DNA of 64,000 bases from Bradyrhizobium sp. CCBAU 53351 (GTDB lineage Bacteria > Pseudomonadota > Alphaproteobacteria > Rhizobiales > Xanthobacteraceae), in the NCBI RefSeq assembly GCF_015291745.1, contig NZ_CP030059.1, positions 3,623,501 to 3,687,500 of the forward strand. Direction: 5' to 3'. The position numbers and the translations under genes are program-made. The notes beneath the pieces were generated by a model. The model made no database searches and had not been told where the DNA came from. It worked only from the letters and a program-made list of their open reading frames with translations. The first letter of the stretch is position 1. Every line of letters starts with the position of its first letter. This document shows positions 5,573 to 52,136 of this stretch, piece by piece.

Positions 5573-8500
5573 AACAGGGCATGAAATCGCCGGCCGAGCT
5601 GCTTGCGCCCGGCCGGGCGCTGACGCTTGCCAATGTCGCGGAAGGCGCCGAGGGGCTCGTCGTCTCCGATCTCGCGCGGGCCATCGCGGCGCGGCCGAAG
5701 AAGCCGGCCGTCAGCATGGCGGTGGTCTGCCGCGACGGCCCGCGCATGCAGCAGCTCGAACGCGCGCTGCAATTCTTCGCGCCCGATCTGCCGGTGCTGA
5801 CCTTTCCGGCCTGGGACTGCCAGCCCTATGACCGTGTCTCGCCGCATGGCGGCATCCTGGCGCAACGCCTGACGACGCTGGCGCGGCTTGCGTCCCTGAC
5901 CGGCAGCGAAAAGCCGCTGATCGTGTTGACCACGGTGAACGCCGTCGTGCAGCGCGTGCCTGCGCGCGAACTCGTCGCGGCGCAGGCGCTGTCGGTTGCC
6001 CCCGGCAATGTCGTGCCGATGGACACCATCGTGGCCTGGCTGGAGCACAACGGCTACAACCGCTCCTCGACCGTGCGCGAGCCCGGCGAATATGCCGTGC
6101 GCGGCGGCATCCTGGATCTGTTTCCGGCCGGCCTCGACCAGCCCGTGCGCTTCGACTTTTTCGGCGACAGCCTGGAATCGATCCGCAGCTTCGATGCCGA
6201 GACCCAGCGCACGCTGCTCGACATGCGCTCGCTCGACCTCGTGCCGGTCTCCGAATTCCAGCTCGTCACCGACACCATCCGCCGTTTCCGCATGGGCTAT
6301 GTCGCCGAGTTCGGCGCACCCGAGCGCGACGATGCGCTGTACGAGGCCGTCAGCGAGGGCCGCCGCCATCCCGGCATGGAGCACTGGCTGCCGCTGTTCC
6401 AGGACCGGATGGACACGCTGTTCGACTATCTGCAAGGCGCTCCGATCGCGATCGAGCCGCAGGCCGAGGACGCCGTCCGCGAGCGCTTCAAGCAGATCCA
6501 GGACTATTACGAGGCCCGCCGCGAGGCGATGGAGCATCCCGGCGGCGGCGCGATCTACAAGCCGCTGCCGCCCGATCGGCTCTATCTCACCGGCGAGGAA
6601 TGGACCAAGCGCGAGAGCGAGATGCCGCTGGTGCGGCTGACGCAGTTCTCGGTTCCCGCCGATGGGACTGGCGTCGTCGACGCCGGTGCGCGCAAGGGCC
6701 GCGACTTCGCGCCGGAGCGCAACGACACAACGGTCAACGTGTTCGAGGCCGTCGTCAGCCACGTCATGGCGCTGCAGGCGCAGCGCAAGAAGGTCGTGAT
6801 CGCACTGTGGAGCGAAGGCTCGCGCGACCGCATGACCTCGATGCTGCGCGACCACAAGCTGACCCATACCACCAGCGTCAACTCCTGGCGCACGGTGCAG
6901 GCGACCCCGCGCAACGAGACCATGCTCGCCGTGCTCGGTCTCGAGAGCGGTTTCGAAACCGACGAGATCGCCCTCATCAGCGAGCAGGACATCCTCGGCG
7001 ACCGCCTGGTGCGGCCGCGCAAGGCCAGCCGCAAGCTCGACAATTTCATCTCGGAGGTGACGAGCCTTGCCGCCGGCGACATCGTCGTCCACGTCGATCA
7101 CGGCATCGGCCGCTTCGTCGGCCTGCAGACGCTGGACGTCGCCGGCGCGCCGCACGACTGCCTCGAGCTGCATTATGCCGCCGAGACAAAACTGTTTTTG
7201 CCGGTCGAGAACATCGAGCTGCTGTCGCGCTACGGCTCCGACCAGACCTCGGTCGAGCTGGATCGCCTGGGCGGTGGCGGCTGGCAGACCCGCAAGGCGA
7301 AGCTCAAGAACCGCATTCGCGAGATCGCCGGCGAACTGATCAAGATCGCGGCCGCGCGCCATTTGCACGAGGCGCCGAAGCTGCCGGTGCAGCCCGGCCT
7401 CTACGACGAATTCTGCGCACGCTTCCCCTATGACGAGACCGAGGACCAGCTGGGGGCCATCGAATCCACACTGAAAGACCTCGAGCTCGGCCGCCCAATG
7501 GACCGGCTGATCTGCGGCGACGTCGGTTTCGGCAAGACCGAGGTGGCCCTGCGCGCAGCGTTTGCCGTGGCGCTCGAGGGCAAGCAGGTCGCGGTCGTGG
7601 TGCCGACCACGCTGCTCGCGCGCCAGCACGCAAAGACCTTCACCGAGCGCTTCAAGGGCTTTCCCGTGAACGTGGCGCAGGCTTCGCGCCTGATCGCGAC
7701 CAAGGAGCTCAACCTCGTCAAGAAGGGTATCGCCGACGGCTCGGTCGATATCGTCGTCGGTACTCACGCGCTGCTCGGCAAGGCCATCAAATTCCGCGAT
7801 CTCGGCCTCGTGATCGTCGACGAGGAGCAGCATTTCGGCGTCACTCACAAGGAGCGTCTGAAGGCGCTGCGCTCCGAGGTGCACGTGCTGACACTGTCGG
7901 CAACGCCGATCCCGCGCACGCTGCAACTCGCGCTGACCGGCGTCCGCGAGCTCTCGATCATCGCTTCTCCGCCCGTGGACCGCCTTGCGGTGCGCACCTT
8001 CGTCGCTCCGCACGACCCGCTGATGATCCGCGAGGCATTGCTGCGTGAGCGCTATCGCGGCGGCCAGGCGTTCTACGTGGTGCCGCGCATCGACGACCTC
8101 GCCGAGGTCAAGGACTTCCTCGACAAGAACGTGCCCGAGATGAAGGTCGCGGTCGCACACGGGCAGATGCCGCCCGCCGTGATCGAGGACATCATGACCG
8201 CGTTCTACGACGGCAAGTTCGACATCCTGCTGTCGACCACGATCGTCGAGTCCGGCCTCGACATCCCGAACGCCAACACGCTGATCGTACACCGCGCCGA
8301 CATGTTCGGCCTCGCCCAGCTCTATCAGCTGCGCGGCCGCGTCGGCCGCTCCAAGCTGCGCGCCTATGCGCTGTTCACGCTGCCGGCGCAGCAGAAGATC
8401 ACCGCGCAGGCCGAGCGCCGGCTCACCGTGCTGCAATCGCTGGAGACCCTCGGCGCCGGCTTCCAGCTCGCTTCCCACGACCTCGACATCCGCGGCGCCG

Positions 8501-34846: not shown

Positions 34847-34990
34847 GACACGCCCCATTGGCTGAACCTGCCGGGCATCGTGTCACGACACGGAAGGGAC
34901 CGATGTGAGGGGTGTCACGCATGCGGTGCCAGCGCCCGCGTCCGGACGCCGTCTCATCAGCCAGGCAGAGCCTCGAAAGGCTCGTTCACC

Positions 34991-36232
34991 TCACTGTCTT
35001 GCTGTCACGGCACGATTGATCACGCGCGCCAGTGAGACGGCGGAGTCCGTACCGACCGGGGCGGCCTTGCCGATCGTCTTTCGCAGTGCGAAGGCCTCGG
35101 ACGCAAACAGCCTGTCCGGGTCCTCCGGGGCGTCCTTGATACCGGTGAGCAGGCGGACCTGCATGCCCTTCAGAAGCTCCGTCACGGCCGGTTTGGCGGT
35201 CGCCTTGTCGGCGGCGTCGGCCAGAAGAGCCTCCTGCCAGCCGCGGTGGGCATTCTTCGGCGTCACGCGCTCCACGAGCTTGTCGTAGCTGGTCTGGTAG
35301 GCGCCAATGGCGACGAGACGATCGTTCTCGGCAAGTTCCGGCGATGTGATCACCTCGGACCGCAGAGCCAGCATCTGCTCGTCCGCATGCTCCAACTCAC
35401 GCTTCATGATGCTGCTTGCAACACCCTGCCAGTGTCGATGAAATCCGAGCTGGGTGAGGGGATTGATCGTATCAGGCCCCTCGGGCAGCAGGCTGGCCGT
35501 GAACTCGATGGCCAGGAGGCAATAGTCCAATCCGGAGACACGTTGGCCGTCGAGCAGCAATCTGTCGTCGGTCACCACCAGCCGCTTGGCAACCGCCTCG
35601 TCGAGATCGGAGCCGGCAACCAGGAGATAGCCGCTGCGGCCGAGCGCATTGCCGTCGGCATACGAGAACAAGGGCGTGACGATGTTGAGCGCGAACAGGC
35701 CGGCGACCCGGTCGTAGATCTTTTCAGCCACGCGCAACCCCTCGGAAACACCCGGCGCGAGCCCGGTCTGCGTGGTCAGGTCGGCGGCCAATTGCAGGAC
35801 CTGCTGCGCGACGTCGTGAAAGGGAAGGCGGAACAGGCCGACGAACAGTGACAGATTGTCCTGCTTCATGGGCGCGCGCCTGACGGCGTAGATATTCTTG
35901 AAATCGACATAGCCTGGAGCGGCGCCGGCCGCCTTCAGCTGGGCGGCGATCTCGTCATTGCTCAAGATCGTGGGCCGGCGCTGGCGCCCGTCGCCGAAGC
36001 TGAACTCGGTGAGCACGACGCCGAGCGGAAGGAACGAGCTGAAGAACTTGCCGCCTTCCCGCAAGCCCATTTCGACCATGCGCACCCCGAAGTAGCTCGC
36101 TTCGGGCACGAAGGTCTGTCCAGCCGTCATTGCATTGCCGCCGCCCGAAGCGACGTAGCCGACATAGGGGCGCCGCAGCTCGCGGCTCGCCCAATGCTCC
36201 ACGACGTTCTTGAGTGTGGTCCAGACGGTCAT
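34991..36232 (-). CDS. Uncharacterised third protein of the sensor-CHAT operon (candidate effector or substrate)
   Basis: A 413-residue protein of no family I recognise. It has no signal peptide, no clear transmembrane helix and no obvious catalytic motif. Notable stretches are YVGYVASGGGNAMTAGQTF (residues 23-41), FFSSFLPLGVVLTEFSFGDG, NLSLFVGLFRLPFHDVAQQV and the acidic, helical C-terminal 130 residues. It begins 23 bp after the CHAT gene stops, so it is cotranscribed with it; an ATG at 36241 is also possible, but GGA at a better distance favours 36232. In other CHAT operons a neighbour is often the protease target; here that is only an inference. Confidence 0.7.
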   Translation of the reverse strand: MTVWTTLKNVVEHWASRELRRPYVGYVASGGGNAMTAGQTFVPEASYFGVRMVEMGLREGGKFFSSFLPLGVVLTEFSFGDGRQRRPTILSNDEIAAQLKAAGAAPGYVDFKNIYAVRRAPMKQDNLSLFVGLFRLPFHDVAQQVLQLAADLTTQTGLAPGVSEGLRVAEKIYDRVAGLFALNIVTPLFSYADGNALGRSGYLLVAGSDLDEAVAKRLVVTDDRLLLDGQRVSGLDYCLLAIEFTASLLPEGPDTINPLTQLGFHRHWQGVASSIMKRELEHADEQMLALRSEVITSPELAENDRLVAIGAYQTSYDKLVERVTPKNAHRGWQEALLADAADKATAKPAVTELLKGMQVRLLTGIKDAPEDPDRLFASEAFALRKTIGKAAPVGTDSAVSLARVINRAVTARQ

Positions 36233-36255
36233 GACAATCATCCACTACGAGCGGT

Positions 36256-37833
36256 TCACAGGCAGCGTGCTGCCCAATCGGTCGACTGCGCCAGCAGGAT
36301 CGGCGAGAGCCAGATCGGGCTTTCCTCGTCGTAGTTCAGGCTTTCCCACGATGCGCGGCACGCCTTCCGGAACGCGACGCAAACCGACCGCGTCTTGTGG
36401 AGTTCGTCATAGAACTCCTTGGCGAACTGCGGCGCGCGTTCGTCCTCCACGTTCCATCGGAAGCCCAACGCATAGGGGATTCCGTTCATCACCAATTGCT
36501 GAACGCAGCCCTTCGAGATGCCACGGCAGGCCGAGAGGTAGACCAGCGTCGTTGCTGACAGGCCGTCGGAGGCCGCCACCCTATCGAGTTTCAGGCCGAT
36601 CGCCTGCTCCGGCTGCATCCCGGGAAGGACCAGGGTCGCGGTCTGCTGGCCATCGCTGAAGGCGTGACCGGCATAGTGCAGAATGGTCGGCCGGAATGCG
36701 TCGAGCTGCTTCAGCAAATAGGCGGCCGCCTCGCCCGGAGGGGCATCCGACAGGTTGACGACCTTCAAATCGAAGCAGCCCGCGGCGCCCAGCTCTTCCA
36801 CGTGCTTCAGCTCGATGTCGATATTGCCGAGCTTGTCGAATCTCTTGCCGGCGCAAATCGCGCTGTCGAGTTTCATATCGGGATGCTCGCCGATCTGCGA
36901 ACGCACGAACATCAGTTTTGCGCCCGGCTTGATCCGCGCTCGCTCGCTGGCCCTTCCACGGACGAACGAGGGAATGCGCCGGACAATCGGCGCATAGAGA
37001 AGCACGAATGGTCCGTTTTCCTCCGAAAGATATCGGACGCTCGCCTCGAAGGGCACCGGGTAGAAGCCTGCGTCGCTGATGACAAATCGGAACGACAATC
37101 CCACCAGTCCACCCGCGGACTTCTCGATCTGCGAGAACAGATGTTCGCCGATCGCTTTGACGACGAAGCTCTTGAACAGGCGTGTTCCGACGTCGCGCGT
37201 CTGGCCGAGCCAATTGTTCGGCGGCATCTCATCGCGCGCATAGGCCAGAGCTGCAGACTTGAGGTCATCGAGATCGCTGATGGTGTTCCAGCGAAGCATC
37301 GAGCAGCCGTCTTCACCCGTTCCGAGCCGGCATTCCACCCTGGCGCTGTGGATTTCGATCTCAACCACCCGGAATGCGCCCGGAATGGCGTTCGTCTCGT
37401 CGGGGCGACCGGTGAGCATCGCAATGAACGGGCGCAGGATCCGGTGGCGGTGCAGCTGCAGGGCGTCCATCGGCAGGATCAGCGCATTGCCGGCGGCTCT
37501 GCACTCTTCCTCCAGGTCCGCGCAGGTCCCGAACGAGGGGGCGACCATCAGCACGGAGGTGTGCGGGTCCTGTGCCAAAACCACGGTGTTGAGCAAGTGC
37601 TTTGCACCGAGAGTCGTGCGTGTGTCGTAGCCTGCGCTCGGATCGATCGGCAACCGGGCATCGAGCACGAGCAGTTCGGTCTCGTTCGCGATGAGCCACT
37701 CGCTCGTCTGCGCCGGGGTCATCAGGGGCTTGTCGTACAAGTGCTCCGGGGCCACGCCTGCCGCGAGCAGATGTCCCCGCAGGGTTTCGAACATGTTTGG
37801 CTCGGCGGTGGCGATCGCAATCTTGGCTGTCAT
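36256..37833 (-). CDS. Pseudo-receiver fused to CHAT (caspase-like) protease
   Basis: A 525-residue protein. Residues 1-140 look like a response-regulator receiver (IAIATAEPNMFETLRGHLLA; ELLVLDARLPIDPSAGYDT, with D58 at the phospho-acceptor site), but the acidic pair after strand 1 is lost. Residues 150-525 form a CHAT domain: VPFEASVRYLSEENGPFVLL, then the catalytic histidine H390 in HYAGHAF, the catalytic cysteine C436 in VYLSACRG, and the terminal GFRWNVEDERAPQFAKEFYDEL. The fold matches clan CD peptidases (caspase, separase). Its ATG overlaps the sensor gene's TGA (37830-37833), so synthesis is coupled. Confidence 0.9.
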   Translation of the reverse strand: MTAKIAIATAEPNMFETLRGHLLAAGVAPEHLYDKPLMTPAQTSEWLIANETELLVLDARLPIDPSAGYDTRTTLGAKHLLNTVVLAQDPHTSVLMVAPSFGTCADLEEECRAAGNALILPMDALQLHRHRILRPFIAMLTGRPDETNAIPGAFRVVEIEIHSARVECRLGTGEDGCSMLRWNTISDLDDLKSAALAYARDEMPPNNWLGQTRDVGTRLFKSFVVKAIGEHLFSQIEKSAGGLVGLSFRFVISDAGFYPVPFEASVRYLSEENGPFVLLYAPIVRRIPSFVRGRASERARIKPGAKLMFVRSQIGEHPDMKLDSAICAGKRFDKLGNIDIELKHVEELGAAGCFDLKVVNLSDAPPGEAAAYLLKQLDAFRPTILHYAGHAFSDGQQTATLVLPGMQPEQAIGLKLDRVAASDGLSATTLVYLSACRGISKGCVQQLVMNGIPYALGFRWNVEDERAPQFAKEFYDELHKTRSVCVAFRKACRASWESLNYDEESPIWLSPILLAQSTDWAARCL

Positions 37834-40742
37834 GCCGGTGCCTCCTGCGCGCACAATGGCAGTTCGAACTCGAATCCCGTGCCGTCCAGCTCGGCCAGGG
37901 TACCGTCGTGCTGCTCGACGGTCTTGCGTATCGCCTCGACCGCGATGCTGGCCATCTGCCGTGCCCGGTGCTGGCTCTGCTCGATCGGGTCCACAGCCGA
38001 CGGAGCGATGGTGTCGGCAATCGTCGCGGGCAAGCGCATGGATACCGAGAGGCGATGCGGCTGCCGTTCTGAGATCGTCACGGTCAGCTTGTCGTTCGGC
38101 GTGATGCGCAACGACAAGAGGGAGCTGAGGGCGGAGCGAAACGCAAAGCTCAACCGCTTCGTCCAGCCCCTGACCAATAGGGTACGTCGGATCGCAATCT
38201 CGTCGACGAGGTGGATGGCCTCACGATCCTCGACGGGAAGGCCCTCGACCTCCTGATAGAGAAGTTCCAGGACGTCGAACTGTTCGGGCGCTTCCTGCGG
38301 GGTCTGCTGAACGACAAGACGCTCGGCCAGGCGCTCGAAGGTCAGATCGGCCCGAAGCAAATGGTTGGCCGCCTGCTCGAGCAGACCGGAGCAGTTTCTC
38401 ATAAGGTCCGGCTTGCCGAGGAGCGAGGCGGCGCTGCGCAGCAGGCCATCGGCCATCAACAGCGGAGCGCGGGTCTCGCGCGCGACAGCCGTGACGGTTT
38501 CCTCCAGATAGCCCCAGTCGCTCTCCCGGCTTTGGTCGGCGAGGCTGGTGAACAGCCAGAGCTGATGACCATAGTCGTCGTTCAACGGCTCGCGATTGGC
38601 GAGAACCGTCAGCTCGGTGCGCGGCGCATCTCCGATCGCCAAATGGACCCGCAGCCGGTGCTGGATGCCGGTTTCCGCCAGTTGCACGGAGTCTTCGTCC
38701 CGAGCGCCAAATGACGAGAGCTTCTTGTCACGTGCCTGGCCGAAGATGTTGGCCGCGGCACCATTCATGTGGCAGATCGTGCCGACGGCATCCACGATGA
38801 CGGCTGCCTGCTCGATCCTGTTCATGAGCGCATACTCGATCGCTTCGTGCCAGCGAGCCGCAAAGATCTGTTCGCAGTCGGCGGCAAGCCCGCTTGCCGC
38901 GTCCCGATCAGGTCCGCGGAACGCGTTCAGCTCCGACGATTCCATGTCCAGAATGAGCTCGATCTTGCCATTCACGAACAGAGGCACGGTCATGGCAGAT
39001 CGTTGATCGGGGGCGGTCTGGATGAAGCCGTAATTCCGCTCGGTGTCGCTGATATCAGGAACGACGAGAATGTCCCGCGCGGTCAGGCAGCTGCCGAGCA
39101 TGCCGCTGGACAGTTCCTGAGTGTATTCGGCCTTGCGGTCGGCCGATTTCACCAAAAGGTTTCTGTCGTTCTTGACGTGCTCGGAAACCAGCACGAACCT
39201 GCTGCGCAGGCGATCGACCCGGAACACGCCGACATACTCCCAGCCCAGGCATTTTGTGGTGCCGGTGGCCAGCAGTTCGGCGATGGCGCGCGCACTCGGC
39301 GCCTTGTTCAAGTCATCCTTGAGCTTGCGCAAGGCGTGCGCCTGAGCATGTTCCATGGCAGCGTTTGCGGCCTGCAAGATCTCCTCGACGCCGAGATTTT
39401 GCAGCGTGCGCAGGTCAGCGGCGGTGTATTTGTGCTTGCGGGACAGCAGAGCCAGCGAGCTTCCGAACCGGCCTCCCGCCTTGCGTATCGGCAGCACGAG
39501 CATCGACTCGAACTTGTCGTCGATGATGGCCTTGCTCACCGGATTGTCTTTTTCCTCCGGATTGCGGCTCTCGACGAACCCGGCCAGATCGTTGTCCCAC
39601 GTCTTGCCCTGCTCGAGCCACTCGATCACGCCAGGCGGCACCTTGAACCAACGTGTGCTCCACTCCCAGCTGGGTCGTGGAGAGATAGTGACGGCTCGCC
39701 AATAATCGTTGAGATCGTTGTAGACCCCGAACGTGCTCATTTCGAATGGGATAACCTTGCCGATCGCCTGAAGCGTCGCCTCGATGATCTCTTGCGGATC
39801 ATCGTGCCCGGCGAGAATCGTCTTGAGCTCGTGACGCGCGCGATCCTCGGCAAGAGGAGCGAACAGCACCAACAACCCTGCCGAGCTGTTCGGTGCTTCC
39901 ATGTAGGGCGTTCCGCTGACCCTTGCCAGAACGGACCGACCGTCTTTTGGACGGAGCCGGACGAAGCTGGAGAAGCCGGTCTGCTTGGTGATCCATTCGG
40001 CGAACAGGTTCGTCGTTCCGTCGTCGTCTGGCCCGAACACGTGAGAGAGCGACATCTCCTTGAGCTCTGATTCCGAGAACCCCAGGACCTGCGCGGCTCG
40101 CTCGTTCGCGAACCGGATCTTGCCGGTCAGGTCGGTGCGGAGCACGCCATCCTGCAAGGCATCGAGGCGGCTCTGTTCCGCGCTCTGATCGAGCAGGAGG
40201 GCGTAATTGCCCGGTTTGCCGTCTTCGTCGCGCAACGGGCCGATCTCGACTCTGACCTGACGAACCGTTTCGCCGGTCTGGATGTCGGCCCGCAAGCTCG
40301 TGTTGTGATTTGCCCGGAGCGCCATGTACACATCGGCCGCACGGGATCCGAACAAGCCGGAGAAGGGAGCGCCGCGTTTGCCGGGAATGAGCTTGTCGAA
40401 TGCCGCATTGGAATAGACGATGCGACCGTCATTCGCCAGTTCGACGAAGGGAATCTCGCTGTAATGCGCGGCTTCATCAAGCGCGTCATACCGCTCCGAC
40501 AATACGTTCAGCACGGTATTTTGCGATTGCAGGATTTTGCCGACGGTGTGAGCGTCGAAGCCGAATTCCGAGACGAGCATCCGCGCTTGCTCGTTGACCA
40601 GAGGCTGCAGCGCGGTGGTCAGGCTGGTCTGCCGATTTCGGAGCGCGCCGATGACGTGGCGCCTGACGACTTCCTCCGACGTCAACGAGCGAGGGCCCCA
40701 GTCACCTGAGACTAGCGATGGTGTCGCACGGAGTTCCTCCAT
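37830..40742 (-). CDS. Multi-domain PAS/GAF sensor with degenerate histidine-kinase core
   Basis: A 970-residue soluble sensor, first gene of the three-gene operon. Approximate domains: helical N-terminus 1-90; PAS 92-190 (FVELANDGRIVYSNAAFDKL); PAS 195-300 (GVLRTDLTGKIRFANERAAQVLG); GAF 310-465; GAF 480-635; PAS 640-735 (AVIVDAVGTICHMNGAAANIFG); then a HisKA/HATPase-like module. In the H-box AVARETRAPL the histidine is replaced by R755, and no N-box or DxGxG motif is visible, although the C-terminal AIRKTVEQHDGTLAELDGTG keeps the HATPase end. Autophosphorylation is unlikely. GAGG lies 6 bp before the ATG. Local GC is lower than the flanks. Confidence 0.85.
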   Translation of the reverse strand: MEELRATPSLVSGDWGPRSLTSEEVVRRHVIGALRNRQTSLTTALQPLVNEQARMLVSEFGFDAHTVGKILQSQNTVLNVLSERYDALDEAAHYSEIPFVELANDGRIVYSNAAFDKLIPGKRGAPFSGLFGSRAADVYMALRANHNTSLRADIQTGETVRQVRVEIGPLRDEDGKPGNYALLLDQSAEQSRLDALQDGVLRTDLTGKIRFANERAAQVLGFSESELKEMSLSHVFGPDDDGTTNLFAEWITKQTGFSSFVRLRPKDGRSVLARVSGTPYMEAPNSSAGLLVLFAPLAEDRARHELKTILAGHDDPQEIIEATLQAIGKVIPFEMSTFGVYNDLNDYWRAVTISPRPSWEWSTRWFKVPPGVIEWLEQGKTWDNDLAGFVESRNPEEKDNPVSKAIIDDKFESMLVLPIRKAGGRFGSSLALLSRKHKYTAADLRTLQNLGVEEILQAANAAMEHAQAHALRKLKDDLNKAPSARAIAELLATGTTKCLGWEYVGVFRVDRLRSRFVLVSEHVKNDRNLLVKSADRKAEYTQELSSGMLGSCLTARDILVVPDISDTERNYGFIQTAPDQRSAMTVPLFVNGKIELILDMESSELNAFRGPDRDAASGLAADCEQIFAARWHEAIEYALMNRIEQAAVIVDAVGTICHMNGAAANIFGQARDKKLSSFGARDEDSVQLAETGIQHRLRVHLAIGDAPRTELTVLANREPLNDDYGHQLWLFTSLADQSRESDWGYLEETVTAVARETRAPLLMADGLLRSAASLLGKPDLMRNCSGLLEQAANHLLRADLTFERLAERLVVQQTPQEAPEQFDVLELLYQEVEGLPVEDREAIHLVDEIAIRRTLLVRGWTKRLSFAFRSALSSLLSLRITPNDKLTVTISERQPHRLSVSMRLPATIADTIAPSAVDPIEQSQHRARQMASIAVEAIRKTVEQHDGTLAELDGTGFEFELPLCAQEAPA

Positions 40743-41065
40743 AACAACCTCGCTCGCTTACGCATACCGGCGCCGACAGAGCGTCGAGAAGCGGCTCTTT
40801 TCGGTCTACTCATCTCGGCGAAACGGTGCCTACTGCGTAGTATGAAAGTCGCAAATAGTCTGGCGATCAATCCAGACTAGAAGCAACGATCGCGTGCGGA
40901 GTATGAAATGGTTCACAATGGAGCCCTTGAATCGAGCAAGCGCACCACATGAGGCTCCGGCTCATCGGCGTGAGATCGCGACTGACATCTGACAGTCGCG
41001 TCATCCATTGCAGCGAGAATCGAAAGAAGGTCAGCCGAGCTGTGCCATGTTGGCTTCGGCGCTGC
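40743..41065. other. Low-GC intergenic region upstream of the sensor operon
   Basis: No gene is supported here. It contains two perfect inverted repeats with the same geometry: TAGTCTGG/CCAGACTA (40856-40863 and 40872-40879) and CGCGACTG/CAGTCGCG (40977-40984 and 40993-41000), each with 8-bp arms and an 8-bp spacer. agtatgaaa occurs twice (about 40839 and 40899). The first repeat is about 115 bp upstream of the sensor ATG and could be an operator; the second could end the DUF2147 transcript. Confidence 0.5.
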
Positions 41066-41929
41066 CTAGTTGACCCGTGTCCATGTCTGGCCGCCGCAGA
41101 ACATGCCGCCGAAGGCGCAGCCCTGCACGCGCAGGCGATCGGTGCCTTTCATCGCGATCGTCGAATCGTAAGTCGAGCCGGAGTTCGGATCGAGGATGCG
41201 CCCGGACCACTTCTGGTCCTTGCCGGGCTTCATGTTGATCAGAACCTGCTCGCCGTTCTGGTTCGATTTGCCGTCGACCGAATAGCCGCACAGATTGGTG
41301 CCGCATTGCTCGATGCGGACCTTGCCTTCCTTCTCCTCGGTGAGCCAGACGCCGAGCGGTGAATTGAGATCGCGCGTGGGGGCGGCTGCTGGAGCGGGCG
41401 GGGCGACGGCAGCGGCCTGAACGGGAGCAGGGGCCGGCGCGGGAGGCGGAGGCGGAGCCGGTGGCGCCGCAGCCACTGCGGGGGCCGGCGGCGGTGCTGC
41501 GGCGGGCGCTGCCTGCTGCTCGACTGGCGCAGGTGCCGGAGGAGGCGCGGCCGGCGGCAACACTGCCGTCTCGGCCGGCGCGTTGCTGGCCGTTGCCGCC
41601 GCAGGCGGAGCCGGCGGTGGGGCTGCGGCAGCGGGTGCGGGCGCCTGCACGGCGGCGGCGGGCGGTGTGGTGACGGGCGCGGGGGCTGGCGCGGCCGGCG
41701 CTTGCGGCTCGACCGTGGCTTGCTGCGGCGGCTGCTGGCCCGGAGACGCCTCGTTCTTCTTAGCCTTCTTGGCCTTGGGCTGGGGGGTGTTGTCGTACAC
41801 GCCGGGGATTTGCACCGTGCCGCGGTCCGGGTCGATGCGAATGGTGCGCCCGCCATATTCGAAAGTGTACTGCGCCTGCGCAGCGGTGCTCGCCAAAAGG
41901 AATGCGGCCGTGGCCAACAGCTTCCTCAT
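41066..41929 (-). CDS. Secreted DUF2147 domain protein with long Ala/Pro linker
   Basis: A 287-residue exported protein. Residues 1-19 form a signal peptide (MRKLLATAAFLLASTAAQAQ). A short N-terminal part (YTFEYGGRTIRIDPDRGTVQ) is followed by about 120 residues of nearly pure Ala/Pro, and residues 190-287 match DUF2147: PLGVWLTEEKEGKVRIEQCG, LCGYSV, GKDQKWSGRILDPNSGSTYD and a last strand ending in WTRVN. DUF2147 proteins are envelope-localised and of unknown function. The start was set at 41929 because AGGAG is 6 bp upstream. Confidence 0.82.
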   Translation of the reverse strand: MRKLLATAAFLLASTAAQAQYTFEYGGRTIRIDPDRGTVQIPGVYDNTPQPKAKKAKKNEASPGQQPPQQATVEPQAPAAPAPAPVTTPPAAAVQAPAPAAAAPPPAPPAAATASNAPAETAVLPPAAPPPAPAPVEQQAAPAAAPPPAPAVAAAPPAPPPPPAPAPAPVQAAAVAPPAPAAAPTRDLNSPLGVWLTEEKEGKVRIEQCGTNLCGYSVDGKSNQNGEQVLINMKPGKDQKWSGRILDPNSGSTYDSTIAMKGTDRLRVQGCAFGGMFCGGQTWTRVN

Positions 41930-46452: not shown

Positions 46453-47364
46453 TCAACCCTTTGTCGCACCGGCGGTCAGGCCGGCAATGTAGTAGTCCAT
46501 CAGGAAAGCGTAGATGATCAACGGCGGCGCGGCGCCAAGCAGTGCGCCGGTCATGATCTGTCCCCAGTTGAAGACGTCGCCCTTGATCAGCGTGGTGGTG
46601 ATGCCGACCGGCAGCACGAGCTGATCCACCGACGTCGTGAACACCAGGGGATAGAGGAACTGGGCCCAGGACACCGTAAAAGCGAAGATGGTTGCGGCGA
46701 TCAGTCCGGGCAGCGCGACGGGGATGAAGATGCGCGTCAGGGTCTGGAGCCAGGAGGCACCGTCGATGAGGGCGGCCTCATCCAGCTCCTTCGGGATCGA
46801 GGCGAAGTAGCCGATCATGATCCAGGTGCAGAACGGCACGGTCAGCGTCGGATAGATGAACACCAGCACGTACCATCGGTTGAGCAGCGTGATGCCGGTC
46901 AGGTCCTGAACCATCCCGAGCACCTTGAACAAGGGAATGAACAGAAGGCTGTCCGGAATCAGGTAGGTGAGGAACACACCGGTCGCGAGTGTCGCCGAGC
47001 CCCAGAACTTCATCCGGGCCAATGCGAAGGCCGCGGGGATGCTGATCATCATGGTCACGATCACCACGATGATCGAGATGATCGACGAATTCCAGAAGAA
47101 GCGCAGAAACTGGTTCGAGCTCAACAGCTCGACATAGTTCGAGAGCGTTGGGTGAAATACCCACCACGGGTTGGTTGCCGCCGAGATCTCCGCACTGCTC
47201 TTGAGCGAGGTGATCAGCATGTAGACCGGCGGCGTCAGGAAGAAGATCGCGAACAGCACCAGGAAGAAATAGGACCAGCGCAGCGCCCAGATGCGGTCGC
47301 GGCTCATGCTGCCGTATTTGACCTTGCGGGACGGTCCGGCCTTGTCGATTGCGAGTGTGCTCAT
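46453..47364 (-). CDS. Carbohydrate ABC transporter permease (MalG type)
   Basis: A 303-residue inner-membrane permease with six predicted membrane spans. The EAA loop that contacts the ATPase is SIPKELDEAALIDGASWLQ (around residue 195), followed by IFIPVALPGLIAATIFAF. A leading cytoplasmic segment (MSTLAIDKAGPSRKVKYG) is usual for CUT1 permeases. The start overlaps the MalF-type stop by one base (TGATG). Confidence 0.92.
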   Translation of the reverse strand: MSTLAIDKAGPSRKVKYGSMSRDRIWALRWSYFFLVLFAIFFLTPPVYMLITSLKSSAEISAATNPWWVFHPTLSNYVELLSSNQFLRFFWNSSIISIIVVIVTMMISIPAAFALARMKFWGSATLATGVFLTYLIPDSLLFIPLFKVLGMVQDLTGITLLNRWYVLVFIYPTLTVPFCTWIMIGYFASIPKELDEAALIDGASWLQTLTRIFIPVALPGLIAATIFAFTVSWAQFLYPLVFTTSVDQLVLPVGITTTLIKGDVFNWGQIMTGALLGAAPPLIIYAFLMDYYIAGLTAGATKG

Positions 47365-48302
47365 CAGGCTTCGTTTCCGCGTTTGTTGACATCGCGCAGG
47401 ATGAAGATCGCAGCGACCGCCAGGATCGGCACCATGAACAGCGAGACGCAGGCGCCGAGCGGAATGTCGCTGCTCTGGATGCCGACCTGGAACGCCCAGG
47501 TGGCGAACAGATGCGTCGTATCCAGCGGGCCGCCCGATGTCAGGATGCGCACGATGTCGAAATTGGCGAAGGTGACGATCAGCGAGAACAAGGTGGTGAT
47601 CGCGATGATATTACGCATCATCGGCAAGGTGATGTGCCAGATCTTCTGCCACCAGTTGGCGCCGTCGATTTCCGCGGCTTCGTACAGCTGGTCGGGCACG
47701 GATTTCAGCGCGGCCAGATACATGATCAGGAAGAACGGCGCGCCGTACCAGACGTTGACGAGGATGACGGAGAAACGCGCCCAGAAGGTGTCGCCGAGCC
47801 AGGGGATGGGCCCGACACCGAAGAAGGAAAGCGTGTAGTTGAAGGCGCTGTAGGAGGGATCGAACAGCCACAGCCATGCCAACGTGCTCATCGCCGGCGG
47901 GATCACCCAGGGCACAAGCAACATGCCACGCCATTTGCGTTGTTTCTTGCCCGGTATGTTGTGGACGAAATGCGCGACGATGAAGCCAATCAGCGCCTTG
48001 AAGATCACGGCGGTGACCGCGAAGATGCAGGATTGCCGCACCACCATCCAGAACGTCTCGCGCTTGAACAGGAAGGTGAAGTTGCTGAGGCCGACGAACT
48101 TCGTCATCGCCTTGTTCAGCGTCGCGAGGTGAATCGAGTAGAGGGCGGGATAGAGCACGAGCAGCAGGATCAGGAGGATCAGCGGCAGCGTCAGGAAGAA
48201 CGCAACCGTCGATTTTCGCCCAAGCACGTTGCGCAGGCTCGATCCCTTTCGCGCGCCCGTCGCACGGACAACGCGACCTTGCTCGACGACGACATCAGCC
48301 AT
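47364..48302 (-). CDS. Carbohydrate ABC transporter permease (MalF type)
   Basis: A 312-residue inner-membrane permease with six predicted spans, partner of the MalG-type subunit. Its EAA loop reads VPDQLYEAAEIDGANWWQK (around residue 205), followed by HITLPMMRNIIAITTLFS. It is separated from the binding-protein gene upstream by 140 bp containing two strong hairpins. Confidence 0.92.
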   Translation of the reverse strand: MADVVVEQGRVVRATGARKGSSLRNVLGRKSTVAFFLTLPLILLILLLVLYPALYSIHLATLNKAMTKFVGLSNFTFLFKRETFWMVVRQSCIFAVTAVIFKALIGFIVAHFVHNIPGKKQRKWRGMLLVPWVIPPAMSTLAWLWLFDPSYSAFNYTLSFFGVGPIPWLGDTFWARFSVILVNVWYGAPFFLIMYLAALKSVPDQLYEAAEIDGANWWQKIWHITLPMMRNIIAITTLFSLIVTFANFDIVRILTSGGPLDTTHLFATWAFQVGIQSSDIPLGACVSLFMVPILAVAAIFILRDVNKRGNEA

Positions 48303-48340
48303 CTCAGCTTCCTTAAGTCAGCATTCTTGCAACTCTCCAG

Positions 48341-48429
48341 CCGCGAAGCCGGCAGAGGGTCGGCTTCGCGGTCATGCGGATCGGAGAACGGGATGCGGGC
48401 GGGCGCACGCACATGGCGTGAACCCGCCC
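48341..48429 (-). promoter_or_regulatory. Two intercistronic hairpins between binding-protein and permease genes
   Basis: Hairpin A is a perfect 11-bp inverted repeat (48341-48351 with 48361-48371, 9-nt loop). Hairpin B pairs 48397-48403 with 48423-48429 and, inside it, CACGC (48406-48410) with GCGTG (48416-48420). Such structures commonly stabilise the binding-protein mRNA and reduce read-through into permease genes; that role is inferred here. Confidence 0.65.
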
Positions 48430-48442
48430 GGTCAAGCCCCAC

Positions 48443-49783
48443 CTAGCTCCGCATGAAGCCTTCGCACTCGCCCTCGGCCCAGGCGAGCGCCTGATCCATG
48501 GTTTCGCCGCGCGCAAAACGCAGCGCCATCTTGGTCAGCGTCGCCTGGAAGTAGATCTGCTGCGCGATTTTGGGCGGCGCCGGCGACGCTGCGATCGACA
48601 GCGTCTGGTGCTTGTAGGGGTCCGGATAATGGAAGAGCGTTCCCTTCGGCGGCCCTTCCTCCTCCCAGGTCTTGAGCTTGGTCATGTTCGCATAGGCCGG
48701 CAGATCGTAGCCGCCGCTCACCGCGACGAACTTGGCGATCGACGAGGGCGATGACATGTGAACCAGCAGGCTCTTGGCCGCCTCCTTGTTCTTGCCAAAA
48801 CTCCAGACGCCCCAGAAGTAGGGCAGGTATGGCGCGAACCGTCCCTTCGGCCCGGACGGGAAGCCGTGTGTCCAGCATTGCTCGGCGACCTGCGGTGCGT
48901 CGCGCTTGGCAACGGCCCATGCGCTCGGCGGGTTCAGGATCATCGCGCCGCGGCCGGAGATCAGCCATTTGTTGTTGGAGGCGTCGTCCCAGGACGGCGC
49001 ATCCGACGGCAGGAAGGCGATCAGCTTCTTGTAGAACTCCATGGCCTGGCGAACCTGATCGGTCTTCACCGTGATATCGCCCTTGGCGTTGACGAGCTCG
49101 GCGCCGAACGACTGGAAGATCGCGCCGGCGGTGTCGACGCTGTCGGTGGTCTCGCCGAGACCGATGCCGAAGGGAACGCCGGCCTTGTGGCAGGCCTCGG
49201 CGGCCTTCAGGAAGGTCTCCATGGTCCAGTTCTCGACCTTGGGGGGGCCGCCGGCCGGATACATCTCCTGCACGTCGATGCCGGCATGCTTCTTCATCAG
49301 ATCGATGCGCGAGCAGGGGCCCTTGATTTGGCTGCCGGGTGTCGCGGGCACTGCGAGCCATTTGCCGCCCGATTGCCCGAGATATTTGACGGTGCCGTTG
49401 ACCTCGCCATTCTGCTTGAGCAGCGGCTCCATGACGTCGTTGAGCGGTTCAAGATTTTCGGAATAGGCCTGCGGCCACCAGCTCGGCATCTGAAGGATGT
49501 CGTGACCGGACTTGGCCTGGGCTTCCGCCGCGGCGGTGAGCTCGATCTTCTTGTTGTTGCTGGTGATGTAGTCGATGGAGACCTCGACCTTCTCCTTCGC
49601 GGCCCATTCATTGACCAGATCGGTCGAGGCCTTGTTGGCGCCTGGCACCCAATGATCCCAGAAGCCGATCGAGAGTTTGCCGGCGGCGTAGGCGCCCCGG
49701 ACATAGGGCGCCGTGATCAGCGCCGCGGAGGACATTGCAGTGGCAGCCACAAATTGACGTCGCGTCAGTTTCTTGCGTGACAT
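48443..49783 (-). CDS. Sugar ABC transporter substrate-binding protein, Tat-exported
   Basis: A 446-residue extracellular solute-binding protein of the family-1 (CUT1) type. The N-terminus MSRKKLTRRQFVAATAMSSA is a twin-arginine signal, cleaved near ARGAYA. The mature protein has IGFWDHWVPGANKASTDLVNEW, HDILQMPSWWPQAYSENLEPL, GRGAMILNPPSAWAVAK and the C-terminal ALAWAEGECEGFMRS. The frame is open to 50080, but the ATG at 49783 carries the Tat motif. The sugar cannot be determined. First gene of the five-gene unit ending with the dehydrogenase. Confidence 0.92.
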   Translation of the reverse strand: MSRKKLTRRQFVAATAMSSAALITAPYVRGAYAAGKLSIGFWDHWVPGANKASTDLVNEWAAKEKVEVSIDYITSNNKKIELTAAAEAQAKSGHDILQMPSWWPQAYSENLEPLNDVMEPLLKQNGEVNGTVKYLGQSGGKWLAVPATPGSQIKGPCSRIDLMKKHAGIDVQEMYPAGGPPKVENWTMETFLKAAEACHKAGVPFGIGLGETTDSVDTAGAIFQSFGAELVNAKGDITVKTDQVRQAMEFYKKLIAFLPSDAPSWDDASNNKWLISGRGAMILNPPSAWAVAKRDAPQVAEQCWTHGFPSGPKGRFAPYLPYFWGVWSFGKNKEAAKSLLVHMSSPSSIAKFVAVSGGYDLPAYANMTKLKTWEEEGPPKGTLFHYPDPYKHQTLSIAASPAPPKIAQQIYFQATLTKMALRFARGETMDQALAWAEGECEGFMRS

Positions 49784-50246
49784 CTCGTTTCCTCGCCTGG
49801 GTGTTGTTGTTGGAGTTTCCTCTAAGACTTCTTTTTCAAGTTCTTGTTGTTCGATTTTCTTATTGATGCCGTCGGCCACATGGCAATGCATGAAGCCGCG
49901 GCAAATTGGTAGCGCGATCAGATCATGATTGACTGCGTCTGTCGAGAAAGCCGAACGGCCTGCACATAGAACTAACGTTGTGTCCCGGAAGGTCGGCGTA
50001 TTGTGCCGGTCGTGAGCTGCGCGCGCATGTTTTTGCGACGCACACTTGGCATGAACCGGCCAGGACCGCGCCGTGCGCAATTACGCCGCAGTTTCGAATA
50101 AGCCTGCATAAACGCTTCGCGCGAAAGACTTTTCCCGCGTGGACAGCAATTGGCTGCGGCTGGACCGCGAAGCGGCGGAAACGATAGAGTTGCGGCGGGC
50201 GCCCCGGCTGCCCAACAGGCGAGTCAGATCGAGGATGGAGACGAGA
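49784..50246. other. Divergent intergenic region without a supported gene
   Basis: The part next to the sugar-binding gene (about 49795-49870) is distinctly AT-rich and runs of T and GTT suggest an unstructured 5' untranslated leader on the minus strand. The rest is ordinary GC-rich sequence. The open frame from 50139 to 50246 is not protein-like. No clear promoter or operator stands out. Confidence 0.4.
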
Positions 50247-51044
50247 ATGATCAACCCGGCGCCGTCAGCGCGGCTTCACATGCGGCGATGCTTCGCGCTG
50301 GGGGCCGTGCTCGCGCTGCTGCTCGGTGCCTCCGCGGTGTCCAATGCCCAAGGTTTGGTCAAGGGCGTTCAGGATGGTGCGGCGGCCGGCAACAAGGCGG
50401 CAGGTCCGGTCGGTGGCGTGCTGGGCGGCGCAATTGGCGGCGTGGTTGGCGTTTTCACCGGTGTGCTCGGCGTCGGCAACAACAATGGCAATCAGGCCCC
50501 GGCCGCCAAGGACGCTGGCAAGGATGCGGGCAAGGACGCCAAGCAGCAGGGCGCCGCCAAGGACAAGGATGCCAAGGGGGCCAAAGCGGGCAAGGGCTCC
50601 AAGGCGAGCAAGGAGGCGAAGAACGCACCGCAAGGCAAAGACAATAATAAGGACGTTACAGTCCTCACCCAGCCTGGCGCGCCGCAGCAGACCGCCGAAC
50701 AGATCGTCGCCAACAGCGATGCCTATATCGAGCGGATCAAGACCGAGCTGAATCTCACGCCCGATCAGGAGAAGCACTGGTACGGCTTTTCGAGCGCTAT
50801 GCACTACCTGGGGCATAATGGCGCGGAGCGGCTCAACTTGCGGGTTGCGCGCGCCAAGCGGGATCCGCCCGACGACATCATCGAGCAGATGCGCAACGAG
50901 TCGCAATTCTTGATCGACCGGGCCGCCGATCAGCGCAATGTCGCGGATGCCGCCGAGCCGCTGTTTTCGAGCCTCGACGACAAGCAGAAGCAGGTCTTCA
51001 TTCAGGAGATGGTGCGCCTGAGCCACGAGCGCGGATTGGATTAA
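50247..51044 (+). CDS. Exported Spy/LTXXQ-motif protein with Lys/Ala-rich linker
   Basis: A 265-residue envelope protein. Residues 12-35 form a signal peptide (MRRCFALGAVLALLLGASAV, then cleavage near SNA). A glycine-rich hydrophobic stretch (GPVGGVLGGAIGGVVGVF) resembles a glycine-zipper segment, and a Lys/Ala/Asp low-complexity linker follows. The C-terminal 110 residues are helical with LTPDQEKHW and LDDKQKQVF, matching the LTXXQ repeats of Spy/CpxP chaperones. ATG at 50247 with GGAG 6 bp upstream; the frame opens earlier at 50139. Periplasmic stress or packing role inferred. Confidence 0.75.
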   Translation: MINPAPSARLHMRRCFALGAVLALLLGASAVSNAQGLVKGVQDGAAAGNKAAGPVGGVLGGAIGGVVGVFTGVLGVGNNNGNQAPAAKDAGKDAGKDAKQQGAAKDKDAKGAKAGKGSKASKEAKNAPQGKDNNKDVTVLTQPGAPQQTAEQIVANSDAYIERIKTELNLTPDQEKHWYGFSSAMHYLGHNGAERLNLRVARAKRDPPDDIIEQMRNESQFLIDRAADQRNVADAAEPLFSSLDDKQKQVFIQEMVRLSHERGLD

Positions 51045-51156
51045 TCAAGTTGAATCGGATCGGGCGCGTCTGAATTAACGGCGCCCGCCACGATTTCGTG
51101 AATCCTTTCCGCAATTGATGTATGGTTAGCTTCGCAAGGCTGACTGCGGGGTTGAT

Positions 51157-51534
51157 ATGGCGGACGGACTCTCCGTTTTCCTGGTCGAAGACGAGGCGTT
51201 GATCCGGATGATGATGGCCGACATGGTGGTGGAACTCGGCCATCACGTCGTCGCGGAAGCGGACAATGTACGGGACGCGAGCGCGTTCGCCATGACCGCG
51301 CAATACGATCTGGCGATCCTCGACATCAATCTCATGGGCGTCTACGTCGATCCCGTCGCCGATCTGATCGAACGTCGCGGAAAGCCGTTTCTGTTCGCCA
51401 CCGGCTACGGACCTGAATTGCTGCCGTCCTTGCTCCGGCGCCGGCCGATCCTGCGCAAGCCGATCGCGATGGATCAGCTGAAGGCGATGATCGATTCGAT
51501 GTTTCCGGGAGCTCCGGTCAACGCGCCGCATTAA
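51157..51534 (+). CDS. Single-domain response regulator
   Basis: A 125-residue CheY-like receiver with no output domain. E11-D12 form the acidic pair (FLVEDEALIRMM), D56 is the phospho-acceptor (LAILDINLMG), T82 is in FATGYG and K101 in ILRKPI. It resembles receivers paired with HWE/HisKA2 kinases in rhizobia. No kinase gene is adjacent, so its partner lies elsewhere. A conserved stop-proximal terminator is shared with the convergent small gene. Confidence 0.88.
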   Translation: MADGLSVFLVEDEALIRMMMADMVVELGHHVVAEADNVRDASAFAMTAQYDLAILDINLMGVYVDPVADLIERRGKPFLFATGYGPELLPSLLRRRPILRKPIAMDQLKAMIDSMFPGAPVNAPH

Positions 51535-51581
51535 GTTACGGCAAGGGCGCCGGCCACGTGACGGCGAGAACGCCGCCAACG

Positions 51582-51611
51582 AAAATGGCCGCCCTTTTGG
51601 GGCGGCCATTT
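51582..51611. terminator. Bidirectional intrinsic terminator
   Basis: ATGGCCGCCC (51585-51594) pairs with GGGCGGCCAT (51600-51609) around a 5-nt loop, with AAA on the left and TT on the right extending the stem. It lies between the response regulator (+) and the small gene (-), which converge. Confidence 0.85.
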
Positions 51612-51633
51612 GGCGACGGATCTTGTCGCAATC

Positions 51634-51786
51634 TCACATCAGGCCGGCACCGAGGTCGATGCCATGTGCCATCAGGCCGAACGAGGCGACCAGGCCCGTG
51701 CAGCAGAACAGCAAGATGGTCTTGAAGGACGAATTGGCGAAACGCGTTTCGACGACGGCCGGCATCGCGGCGATCGAAATCATGCT
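51634..51786 (-). CDS. Small membrane protein (50 residues)
   Basis: The ORF encodes 50 residues with one hydrophobic segment (TILLFCCTGLVASFGLMAHG, residues 24-43) and a short polar N-terminus (MSMISIAAMPAVVETRFANS). AAGGGGG lies 8 bp before the ATG at 51786; a second ATG at 51792 is too close to it. The reading frame extends to 51822. A good terminator follows 22 bp after the stop. No family is recognised. Presence of a ribosome-binding site and own terminator argues for a real gene. Confidence 0.6.
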   Translation of the reverse strand, partial: SMISIAAMPAVVETRFANSSFKTILLFCCTGLVASFGLMAHGIDLGAGLM

Positions 51787-51932
51787 CATGTTCATTGCCC
51801 CCTTGTTGATCCTGAATTGCATCAGGTGAGGGAACTTCTAGAGCAAAAAGTTTGACATGAGATTGCGAGGCGTCGTTAACGGAGTCGCAATCCAATCCCG
51901 CGTTCTCATCGGCCCCGGCCGGATTGCAAGTC

Positions 51933-52136
51933 TCAGTTGCGGCCGTTCTTCAGCACCGTCGCAATGGTGTGGGCCGTCATGGCCGCGCGGTCCGAAGCGC
52001 GCTGGGCGGCCAGCCGGTCTCGCGCCTTTTCCTCGATCAGGAGGTCGATGAGGGCCAGCCGCTTGTTTTCGTCATCCGCCTCGCTCAGCAGGCGATGATA
52101 GCGGTGATAGTCAAAACCGAGATCCTGCTTACGCAT
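51933..52136 (-). CDS. Small hypothetical protein (67 residues)
   Basis: A 67-residue charged, helical, cytoplasmic protein: MRKQDLGFDYHRYHRLLSEA followed by a regular pattern of Glu/Arg/Ala (NKRLALIDLLIEEKARDRLA). It resembles small conserved rhizobial proteins of unknown role. A G-run (GGGGG) precedes the ATG at 52136. A longer version starting at 52184 is possible, but lacks a ribosome-binding site. The reading frame continues far upstream antisense to glk and is not real there. Confidence 0.6.
   Translation of the reverse strand: MRKQDLGFDYHRYHRLLSEADDENKRLALIDLLIEEKARDRLAAQRASDRAAMTAHTIATVLKNGRN

What the first reader, a model, noticed from the sequence alone, without database searches (positions are those of the whole stretch)
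34991..40742. Candidate undescribed sensor-CHAT protease-effector operon
Three minus-strand genes form one tight unit (4-bp overlap, then a 23-bp gap): a PAS/PAS/GAF/GAF/PAS sensor, a pseudo-receiver fused to a CHAT caspase-like protease with H390 and C436 intact, and a 413-residue protein of no recognised family. Seen in the sequence: the domain layout and the catalytic pair. Known: CHAT proteases (for example the Craspase effector and those activating bacterial gasdermins) cut a partner when triggered. Inferred: this is a two-component pathway converted into a sensing-to-proteolysis pathway, in which the third protein is substrate or effector. Hand counts of single 60-base lines gave 35 GC at 39001-39060 against 43 at 7501-7560, suggesting transfer. 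If correct, it would be a defence or programmed-death system sensing redox, ligand or light.
Basis: partly seen in the sequence, partly recalled or inferred. Interest (0 to 1): 0.88.

Follow-up and report, generated by a model that had tools for sequence, protein, structure and literature searches.

The report
Pseudo two-component operon driving CHAT protease
A soil bacterium carries a mobile three-gene unit in which what looks like a disabled two-component sensor pair sits on a caspase-like protease, next to an exchangeable partner protein that may be the protease's target; what it senses and whether it defends or kills is untested.

Summary
In detail: three minus-strand genes (34991-40742), 4-bp overlap, 23-bp gap, CHAT His/Cys pair. 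In the other four it is replaced (subtilase, pentapeptide-repeat protein, LCAT-type hydrolase) or absent. A Deltaproteobacterial relative has an intact kinase beside an intact receiver-CHAT protein. So a two-component pathway appears rewired to proteolysis. In the window's genome the unit is a ~6.1-kb insert at a site empty in relatives; 16 of 21 other loci share no flanking DNA with it. Third-family relatives also lie beside a caspase in a VMAP/MoxR locus, beside a papain-family peptidase and behind a STAND NTPase. Cleavage, effector action and defence are inferred, not shown. New variant of a known kind; interest 0.63.

The parts
37830..40742 (-). Sensor gene, 970 aa: PAS/GAF array followed by a histidine-kinase-like C-terminus
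   Evidence: ORF; PAS 192-293 E 3.9e-16, GAF_2 two stretches E 8.5e-10
37833..38531 (-). Degenerate histidine-kinase core (DHp + ATPase-like), sensor residues 738-970
   Evidence: Profile A7 hits kinases in PDB: 7zp0 E 4.5e-6, ZraS 9jfj E 3.7e-4; AlphaFold pLDDT 76, pTM 0.69; Foldseek best E 4.4e-9, prob 1.00
38478..38480 (-). Codon of sensor R755, at the place of the phospho-acceptor His (block reads ARETRAPL; canonical H-box recalled)
   Evidence: Aligned column is R, G, A, T, Q or N in 20 of 20 sensors; residue 18 of the model, inside its first long helix 2-37. The L054 kinase keeps YHELSNPL (read by eye; the alignment places another stretch of it there). 6 of 20 have a His at another place of the 11-residue block
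37830..37833 (-). 4-bp overlap of sensor stop and CHAT start
36256..37833 (-). Pseudo-receiver-CHAT protease gene, 525 aa
   Evidence: PF12770 E 7.5e-17
37444..37833 (-). Pseudo-receiver domain (about residues 1-130, limits approximate)
   Evidence: Aligns with the intact PF00072 receiver (E 1.8e-26) of L054 CHAT; weak by sequence alone (best non-CHAT PDB hit 3a0u, a response regulator, E 0.014)
36271..37086 (-). CHAT peptidase domain
   Evidence: closest solved relative 8tl0, a SAVED-CHAT protein, E 1.9e-9 with profile A8 (named in passages)
36664..36666 (-). Catalytic His codon (H390)
   Evidence: invariant in 12 of 12
36526..36528 (-). Catalytic Cys codon (C436)
   Evidence: invariant in 12 of 12
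34991..36232 (-). Third gene, 413 aa, unnamed family; probable substrate/effector
   Evidence: No family hit; homologs beside sensor-CHAT in 18 of 22 loci
34921..41067 (.). Extent of the insert relative to the empty site
   Evidence: In G024 (L110) and G948 (L111) the flanks ending at 34920 and resuming at 41068/41066 lie about 100 bp apart

Best explanation
A three-gene, horizontally acquired signalling-to-proteolysis module. A PAS/GAF sensor ends in a dead histidine-kinase core. It holds a CHAT protease through the protease's dead receiver domain, using the old kinase-receiver docking surface without phosphotransfer. A ligand or redox signal changes the docking and frees the CHAT active site (His390/Cys436), which cuts the third protein; the cut third protein carries out the output, most likely growth arrest or cell damage in a stress or anti-invader response. 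Shown: gene order and its conservation, catalytic pair, kinase-like fold of the sensor end (model), loss of the acceptor His at the aligned place, exchange of the third gene, insertion at an otherwise empty site, purifying selection. Inferred: docking, absence of phosphotransfer, triggering, cleavage of the third protein, and its output.
For: Sensor-CHAT pairs in 22 distinct loci; third family adjacent in 18 of 22. Pairwise distances of the three proteins are correlated over 16 triads (Mantel rho 0.81-0.90; 0 of 2000 permutations reach them), though shared ancestry alone also gives such correlation. The third gene is exchanged for a subtilase (L011), a pentapeptide-repeat protein (L010) or an LCAT-type hydrolase (L093) behind the same core, as expected for a swappable downstream partner. 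Kinase-like sensor end, acceptor place not His in 20 of 20, and no row of 20 with all five receiver signature residues. Intact kinase next to intact receiver-CHAT in L054. Third family also next to a caspase in a VMAP-C/MoxR locus (L057), next to a papain-family peptidase (L058) and behind an nSTAND1 NTPase (L061). dN/dS 0.07-0.17.
Against: No direct evidence of cleavage or toxicity. AlphaFold of the third protein failed (pLDDT 49), so its fold is unknown. No strong membrane stretch (max 19-residue Kyte-Doolittle mean 0.86-1.58 in 16 family members) and few invariant polar residues, so neither pore nor enzyme is indicated. In the Prosthecochloris plasmid (L009) and L061 no peptidase is adjacent. 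In 6 of 20 sensors a His stands elsewhere in the H-box block, so an unusual acceptor is not excluded there. The L054 kinase does not hit the sensor profile at 1e-3, so descent of the sensor from such a kinase rests on layout, fold and the related CHAT protein. The G1028 hydrolase starts about 220 bp after CHAT, not tightly joined. No relatives in two viral-contig scans.
Confidence: 0.5

Rival explanations
1. The third protein is a regulator or scaffold of the protease (inhibitor, adaptor or substrate-recruiting partner), and the real substrate lies elsewhere in the cell.
For: Close adjacency and correlated divergence fit a binding partner as well as a substrate. In two Bradyrhizobium loci the CHAT frame is broken (G1140/L092) or apparently split (G1158/L101) while the third gene stays open, so the third protein is tolerated without an intact protease.
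Against: Replacement by proteins with their own catalytic domains (subtilase, LCAT-type hydrolase) at the same place looks more like an effector slot than an adaptor slot.
Confidence: 0.3
2. An ordinary stress-adaptation circuit: sensor-controlled proteolysis of a regulatory protein, with no defence or death role.
For: PAS/GAF sensors commonly serve metabolism and redox control (established knowledge). The insert site carries other DNA in three relatives; its ORFs were not searched against families. No PADLOC match to the three proteins.
Against: Patchy presence (15 of 265 genomes in the genus have the pair), plasmid copies, exchangeable third gene, and the third family's VMAP/MoxR, STAND and caspase neighbourhoods resemble conflict systems.
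Confidence: 0.25
3. A phosphotransfer two-component system that still works, acting through another kinase or an unusual acceptor.
For: The receiver acceptor Asp column is still Asp in 11 of 20 proteins, the window's among them. 6 of 20 sensors have a His elsewhere in the H-box block.
Against: Aligned acceptor place not His in 20 of 20 sensors, and no His in the window's block; no Lys at the receiver's conserved Lys place in 20 of 20; no HisKA or HATPase hit in 11 of 11 sensors at E<=1.
Confidence: 0.1

Closest known systems
Two-component systems (HisKA-HATPase kinase plus PF00072 receiver)
   Same: Gene pairing, kinase-core fold of the sensor end, receiver place at the start of the output protein; intact version with CHAT output in L054
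   Different: Acceptor His not at its place, receiver signature incomplete, output is a protease
SAVED-CHAT protein 8tl0
   Same: Nearest solved CHAT domain by sequence (E 1.9e-9); a signal domain is fused to CHAT (passages of PMC11417357; link to type III CRISPR partly recalled)
   Different: Its signal part is a SAVED domain; here a pseudo-receiver plus a separate sensor protein
Craspase (TPR-CHAT with Cas7-11)
   Same: CHAT protease controlled by a partner that senses a trigger (starts of abstracts of PMC9935389 and PMC9729208 in the listing)
   Different: No Cas or TPR family hit in the three proteins; its substrate Csx30 (recalled) was not compared
VMAP/MoxR ternary and related conflict systems (Kaur et al. 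2020, PMC7159879; passages)
   Same: Constant core plus exchanged effectors; caspases paired with neighbouring alpha/beta-hydrolases; a third-family gene lies in one VMAP-C/MoxR locus (L057)
   Different: No vWA, MoxR or VMAP in the window's operon; the trigger is a PAS/GAF sensor. [quoted passage not shown]
Receiver domains without kinases in conflict systems (Kaur et al. 2021, PMC8195603; passages)
   Different: Here the receiver-like domain is degenerate, fused to CHAT and next to a kinase-like sensor
DivL and RetS kinase regions
   Same: The model matches them (4q20 E 2.6e-8, 6dk8 E 2.4e-7); DivL also lacks the usual His (recalled)
   Different: They feed phosphorelay networks, not a protease (recalled)

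Membership tests
CHAT peptidase family (PF12770) | Domain match over curated cut-off | tested here: met
   62.1 bits against 24
CHAT peptidase family (PF12770) | Catalytic His and Cys | tested here: met
   H390/C436, invariant in 12 of 12
CHAT peptidase family (PF12770) | Proteolytic activity | not testable with these tools
   needs an assay
Histidine kinase | Kinase core fold | tested here: met
   on a predicted model (TM 0.39-0.53 in the 50 rows shown); profile hits
Histidine kinase | Phospho-acceptor His | tested here: not met
   aligned place not His in 20 of 20; 6 of 20 have a His elsewhere in the block
Histidine kinase | ATP-binding N/G boxes | tested here: inconclusive
   Not seen by eye in the alignment (motifs recalled); no HATPase Pfam hit in 11 of 11
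Response regulator receiver (PF00072) | Pfam match | tested here: not met
   1 of 11 and only at E 0.23; none in the window's protein
Response regulator receiver (PF00072) | Acidic pair, Asp, Thr/Ser, Lys signature | tested here: not met
   no row of 20 has all; Asp in 11 of 20, Lys in 0 of 20 (signature recalled)
Craspase | Cas7-11 and TPR-CHAT | tested here: not met
   no TPR or Cas family in the Pfam scan of the three proteins; rest of the genome not searched for Cas7-11
Bacterial gasdermin system | Gasdermin partner next to the protease | tested here: inconclusive
   third protein hits no Pfam family at E<=1; its model is too poor for a fold test
VMAP/MoxR ternary conflict system | vWA, MoxR ATPase and VMAP genes | tested here: not met
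   none among the three operon proteins; VMAP-C and an annotated MoxR ATPase lie near a third-family gene in L057
Known anti-phage systems (PADLOC 2.0) | Match to a PADLOC model | tested here: not met
   0 families for all three at E<=1

The most novel reading that the evidence does not exclude
A class of phosphotransfer-free two-component systems whose output is proteolysis: pseudo-kinase sensor and pseudo-receiver-CHAT protease form a fixed core that plugs into exchangeable protease-activated effectors, and the third protein founds a new effector family used by at least four unrelated trigger modules (pseudo-kinase/CHAT, VMAP-caspase, papain-like peptidase, STAND NTPase).
Probability: 0.4. 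Interest if true: 0.82.

Novelty: new variant of a known kind. Interest (0 to 1): 0.63.

Why it matters
It would show a route by which the two-component system, a very common bacterial sensing device, was turned into a trigger for caspase-like proteolysis, with a form that keeps intact kinase and receiver (L054) available for comparison. It gives a defined, testable protease-substrate candidate and an uncharacterised protein family that recurs beside peptidases and STAND/VMAP genes in several phyla. I found no paper describing such a system in these searches of open-licence PubMed Central papers, judged from titles and starts of abstracts: 0 papers; 8; 6; 2; 6; 397, of which 10 were listed. 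A figure legend in PMC13092281 (DefensePredictor, one passage seen) lists HATPase and receiver domains among its predicted systems; the figure is not held, so overlap is not excluded.

Tried and rejected
Reading the sensor as PAS/GAF only was rejected: its last 233 residues look like a kinase core. Structure of the third protein: model too poor (pLDDT 49); its Foldseek list (no hit at E<=0.001) is not used. Phage link: two viral-contig scans found no relative; one could not run. Defence-island test: 82 of 95 listed neighbour ORFs (13 dropped by me, among them three next to the cores of L093 and L094 that one search had scanned) around 12 loci gave scattered PADLOC hits (Gabija-, DISARM- and RT-like models, each in 1-2 of 82; 25 of 109 families shown); I could not assign most to loci and do not count this as evidence either way. 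A TIR-like reading of the Azospirillum third protein's C-terminus came from memory; phmmer against PDB gave nothing useful, so it is not claimed. A direct profile match of the sensor end to the L054 kinase was weak (hhalign P 0.005-0.01). The response-regulator hits were discarded because that profile contained the intact L054 receiver; without it is the fair, weak result. Broad surveys found the unit rare: with the CHAT profile, 21 of 398 phylum and 12 of 297 order genomes had some CHAT match (the samples overlap), but only the own genome's locus showed a sensor match; short flanks were scanned, so others are not excluded; G086, the next best CHAT, was read over 18 kb and has none.
Full report
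What is there. CHAT scores 62.1 bits over a cut-off of 24 and its His and Cys are invariant in 12 of 12 proteins. The third protein has no family in Pfam, NCBIfam or PADLOC at E<=1. Codon comparison with four relatives gives dN/dS of 0.07-0.17 in 11 gene comparisons, so all three are maintained.

The sensor ends in a kinase-like core. Pfam at E<=1 sees no HisKA or HATPase in 11 of 11 sensors. A profile of the last 233 residues finds histidine kinases among solved proteins (best E 4.5e-6). Its AlphaFold model (pLDDT 76, pTM 0.69) has 196 PDB matches at E<=0.001; the 50 shown are histidine kinases or photoreceptors with kinase-like parts (TM-scores 0.39-0.53 and large rmsd, so the arrangement of subdomains is not fixed). 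At the H-box the window reads ARETRAPL, residue R755 standing where the acceptor His would be. That place is R, G, A, T, Q or N in 20 of 20 sensors; 6 of 20 have a His elsewhere in the 11-residue block. The canonical motif is recalled, and the alignment did not register the L054 kinase's own H-box (YHELSNPL, read by eye), so the register rests on the motif and on the model (residue 18 of its helix 2-37).

The receiver is degenerate. Without L054, response regulators are only weak hits of the CHAT-protein profile (best E 0.014) and PF00072 is found in 1 of 11 at E 0.23. But the L054 homolog has a full receiver (E 1.8e-26) in the same place before CHAT, next to a kinase with HisKA (E 3.6e-6) and HATPase (E 8e-25). 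That kinase does not hit the sensor profile at 1e-3. None of 20 pseudo-receivers has the whole five-residue signature; Asp stays in 11 of 20 and Lys in 0 of 20.

Conservation. A genome-wide scan by one degenerate peptide pattern gave 11 loci: 8 of 11 hold sensor, CHAT and third gene in order; L054 has an intact kinase and no third gene; L055 and L056 are short contigs with other CHAT contexts. Because a single pattern was used, this is a lower bound. In the plasmid collection 3 records match the CHAT protein; all 3 have a PAS or GAF sensor gene before it, and 1 of 3 the third family after it. In the genus, 23 of 265 genomes match the CHAT protein. I examined 20 of these 23; 15 have the sensor-CHAT pair (two of them, L092 and L101, with a broken or apparently split CHAT frame, and L092 with a shortened sensor), and 13 of these 15 the third family. 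The five examined without a sensor have weak CHAT similarity (E 9.5e-7 or worse); three more (G1085, G1034, G951; E 1.7e-6 or worse) were not fetched. With the third protein alone, 2 of 296 family genomes match; with its profile, 2 of 398 phylum genomes. In the 12 triads measured the genes lie on one strand with gaps or overlaps under 70 bp, except in L101, where the CHAT frame is split (ORF starts not refined). The lineages are deeply diverged (roughly 20-30% identity between them), and 16 of the 21 other loci share no flanking DNA with the window's, so the unit has most likely moved repeatedly.

Exchange of the third gene. Behind the same core lie a subtilase in S. meliloti pCpl (PF00082 E 6.3e-31), a pentapeptide-repeat protein in Azospirillum, an LCAT-type hydrolase about 220 bp on, followed by a TCAD7-CHAT protein, in G1028, and no same-strand partner in G1038, which has a convergent metallo-beta-lactamase-like gene and a subtilase.

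The third family elsewhere. Distant members (17-35% identity) occur in a Pseudanabaena plasmid between two caspase-domain genes in a locus with VMAP-C, an annotated MoxR ATPase and an EAD10 protein; in a Sporomusa plasmid after a papain-family peptidase; in G446 after an nSTAND1 NTPase; and in a Prosthecochloris plasmid with no peptidase annotated next to it. So a cysteine peptidase is adjacent in 2 of 4 such places.

Insertion. Flanks ending at 34920 and resuming at 41066-41068 lie about 100 bp apart in G024 and G948; orthologs in G943 (L090), Rc3b (L089), L047, L091 and L048 carry the unit at the same place. Of 31 genus genomes searched, 26 have both flanking genes on one contig (my reading): 2 carry the unit, 3 (G946, G963, G945) have gaps of 7.5-8.7 kb without the third gene, 21 have gaps of 3.9 kb or less, too short for it. 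GC of the insert is 62.3% against 65.1%, a mild difference.

Mechanism. The best reading is that the sensor's dead kinase core docks the dead receiver of the protease and that a ligand or redox state seen by PAS/GAF domains controls the protease, which cuts the third protein. The exchange of the third gene for proteins with their own hydrolase domains argues for an effector slot. None of these last steps is shown. That the third gene stays open where CHAT is broken (L092) or apparently split (L101) shows it is tolerated without an intact protease; this fits both a latent effector and a harmless partner.

Verdict. Real, conserved, mobile, and not found described in the searches made; a new variant of protease-based signalling or conflict systems rather than a wholly new kind.

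Noticed in passing
L054:5502-10966: Deltaproteobacteria MAG with an intact Reg_prop-GAF-HisKA-HATPase kinase beside an intact receiver-CHAT protein: apparently a two-component system that ends in a caspase-like protease.
   Followed up: partly
L093:4848-8326: In G1028 the sensor-CHAT pair is followed by an LCAT-type hydrolase and a TCAD7-CHAT protein, joining this core to a domain named for ternary complexes.
   Followed up: partly
L092:8318-9595 and L101:8693-10181: CHAT gene in three out-of-frame pieces (G1140) and apparently in two overlapping frames (G1158) while the third gene is open.
   Followed up: partly
L057:1703-14139: Pseudanabaena plasmid locus with VMAP-C, MoxR, caspases and EAD10 that contains a third-family gene.
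   Followed up: partly
L009:9007-13437: Prosthecochloris plasmid third-family gene close to a Nif11-type peptide and its radical SAM maturase (annotation).
   Followed up: no
L061:8476-14131: G446: third-family gene behind an nSTAND1 NTPase and two smaller genes with no Pfam family.
   Followed up: no
L107:2784-8745, L108:1984-8884, L109:4411-7397: The same intergenic site holds other DNA in three Bradyrhizobium genomes.
   Followed up: partly
L010:11740-13676: Azospirillum locus continues with a DUF4231 gene and an annotated TIR-domain gene.
   Followed up: no
L094:3983-4879 and L101:5932-6828: Same-length (299 aa) genes with the same Walker A motif near two of the units; two IstB_IS21 Pfam hits were found among the 82 neighbours scanned, probably these.
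   Followed up: no
window 47001-52000: Stretch with several lower-GC kilobases (0.591-0.638) in a 65.1% GC window.
   Followed up: no
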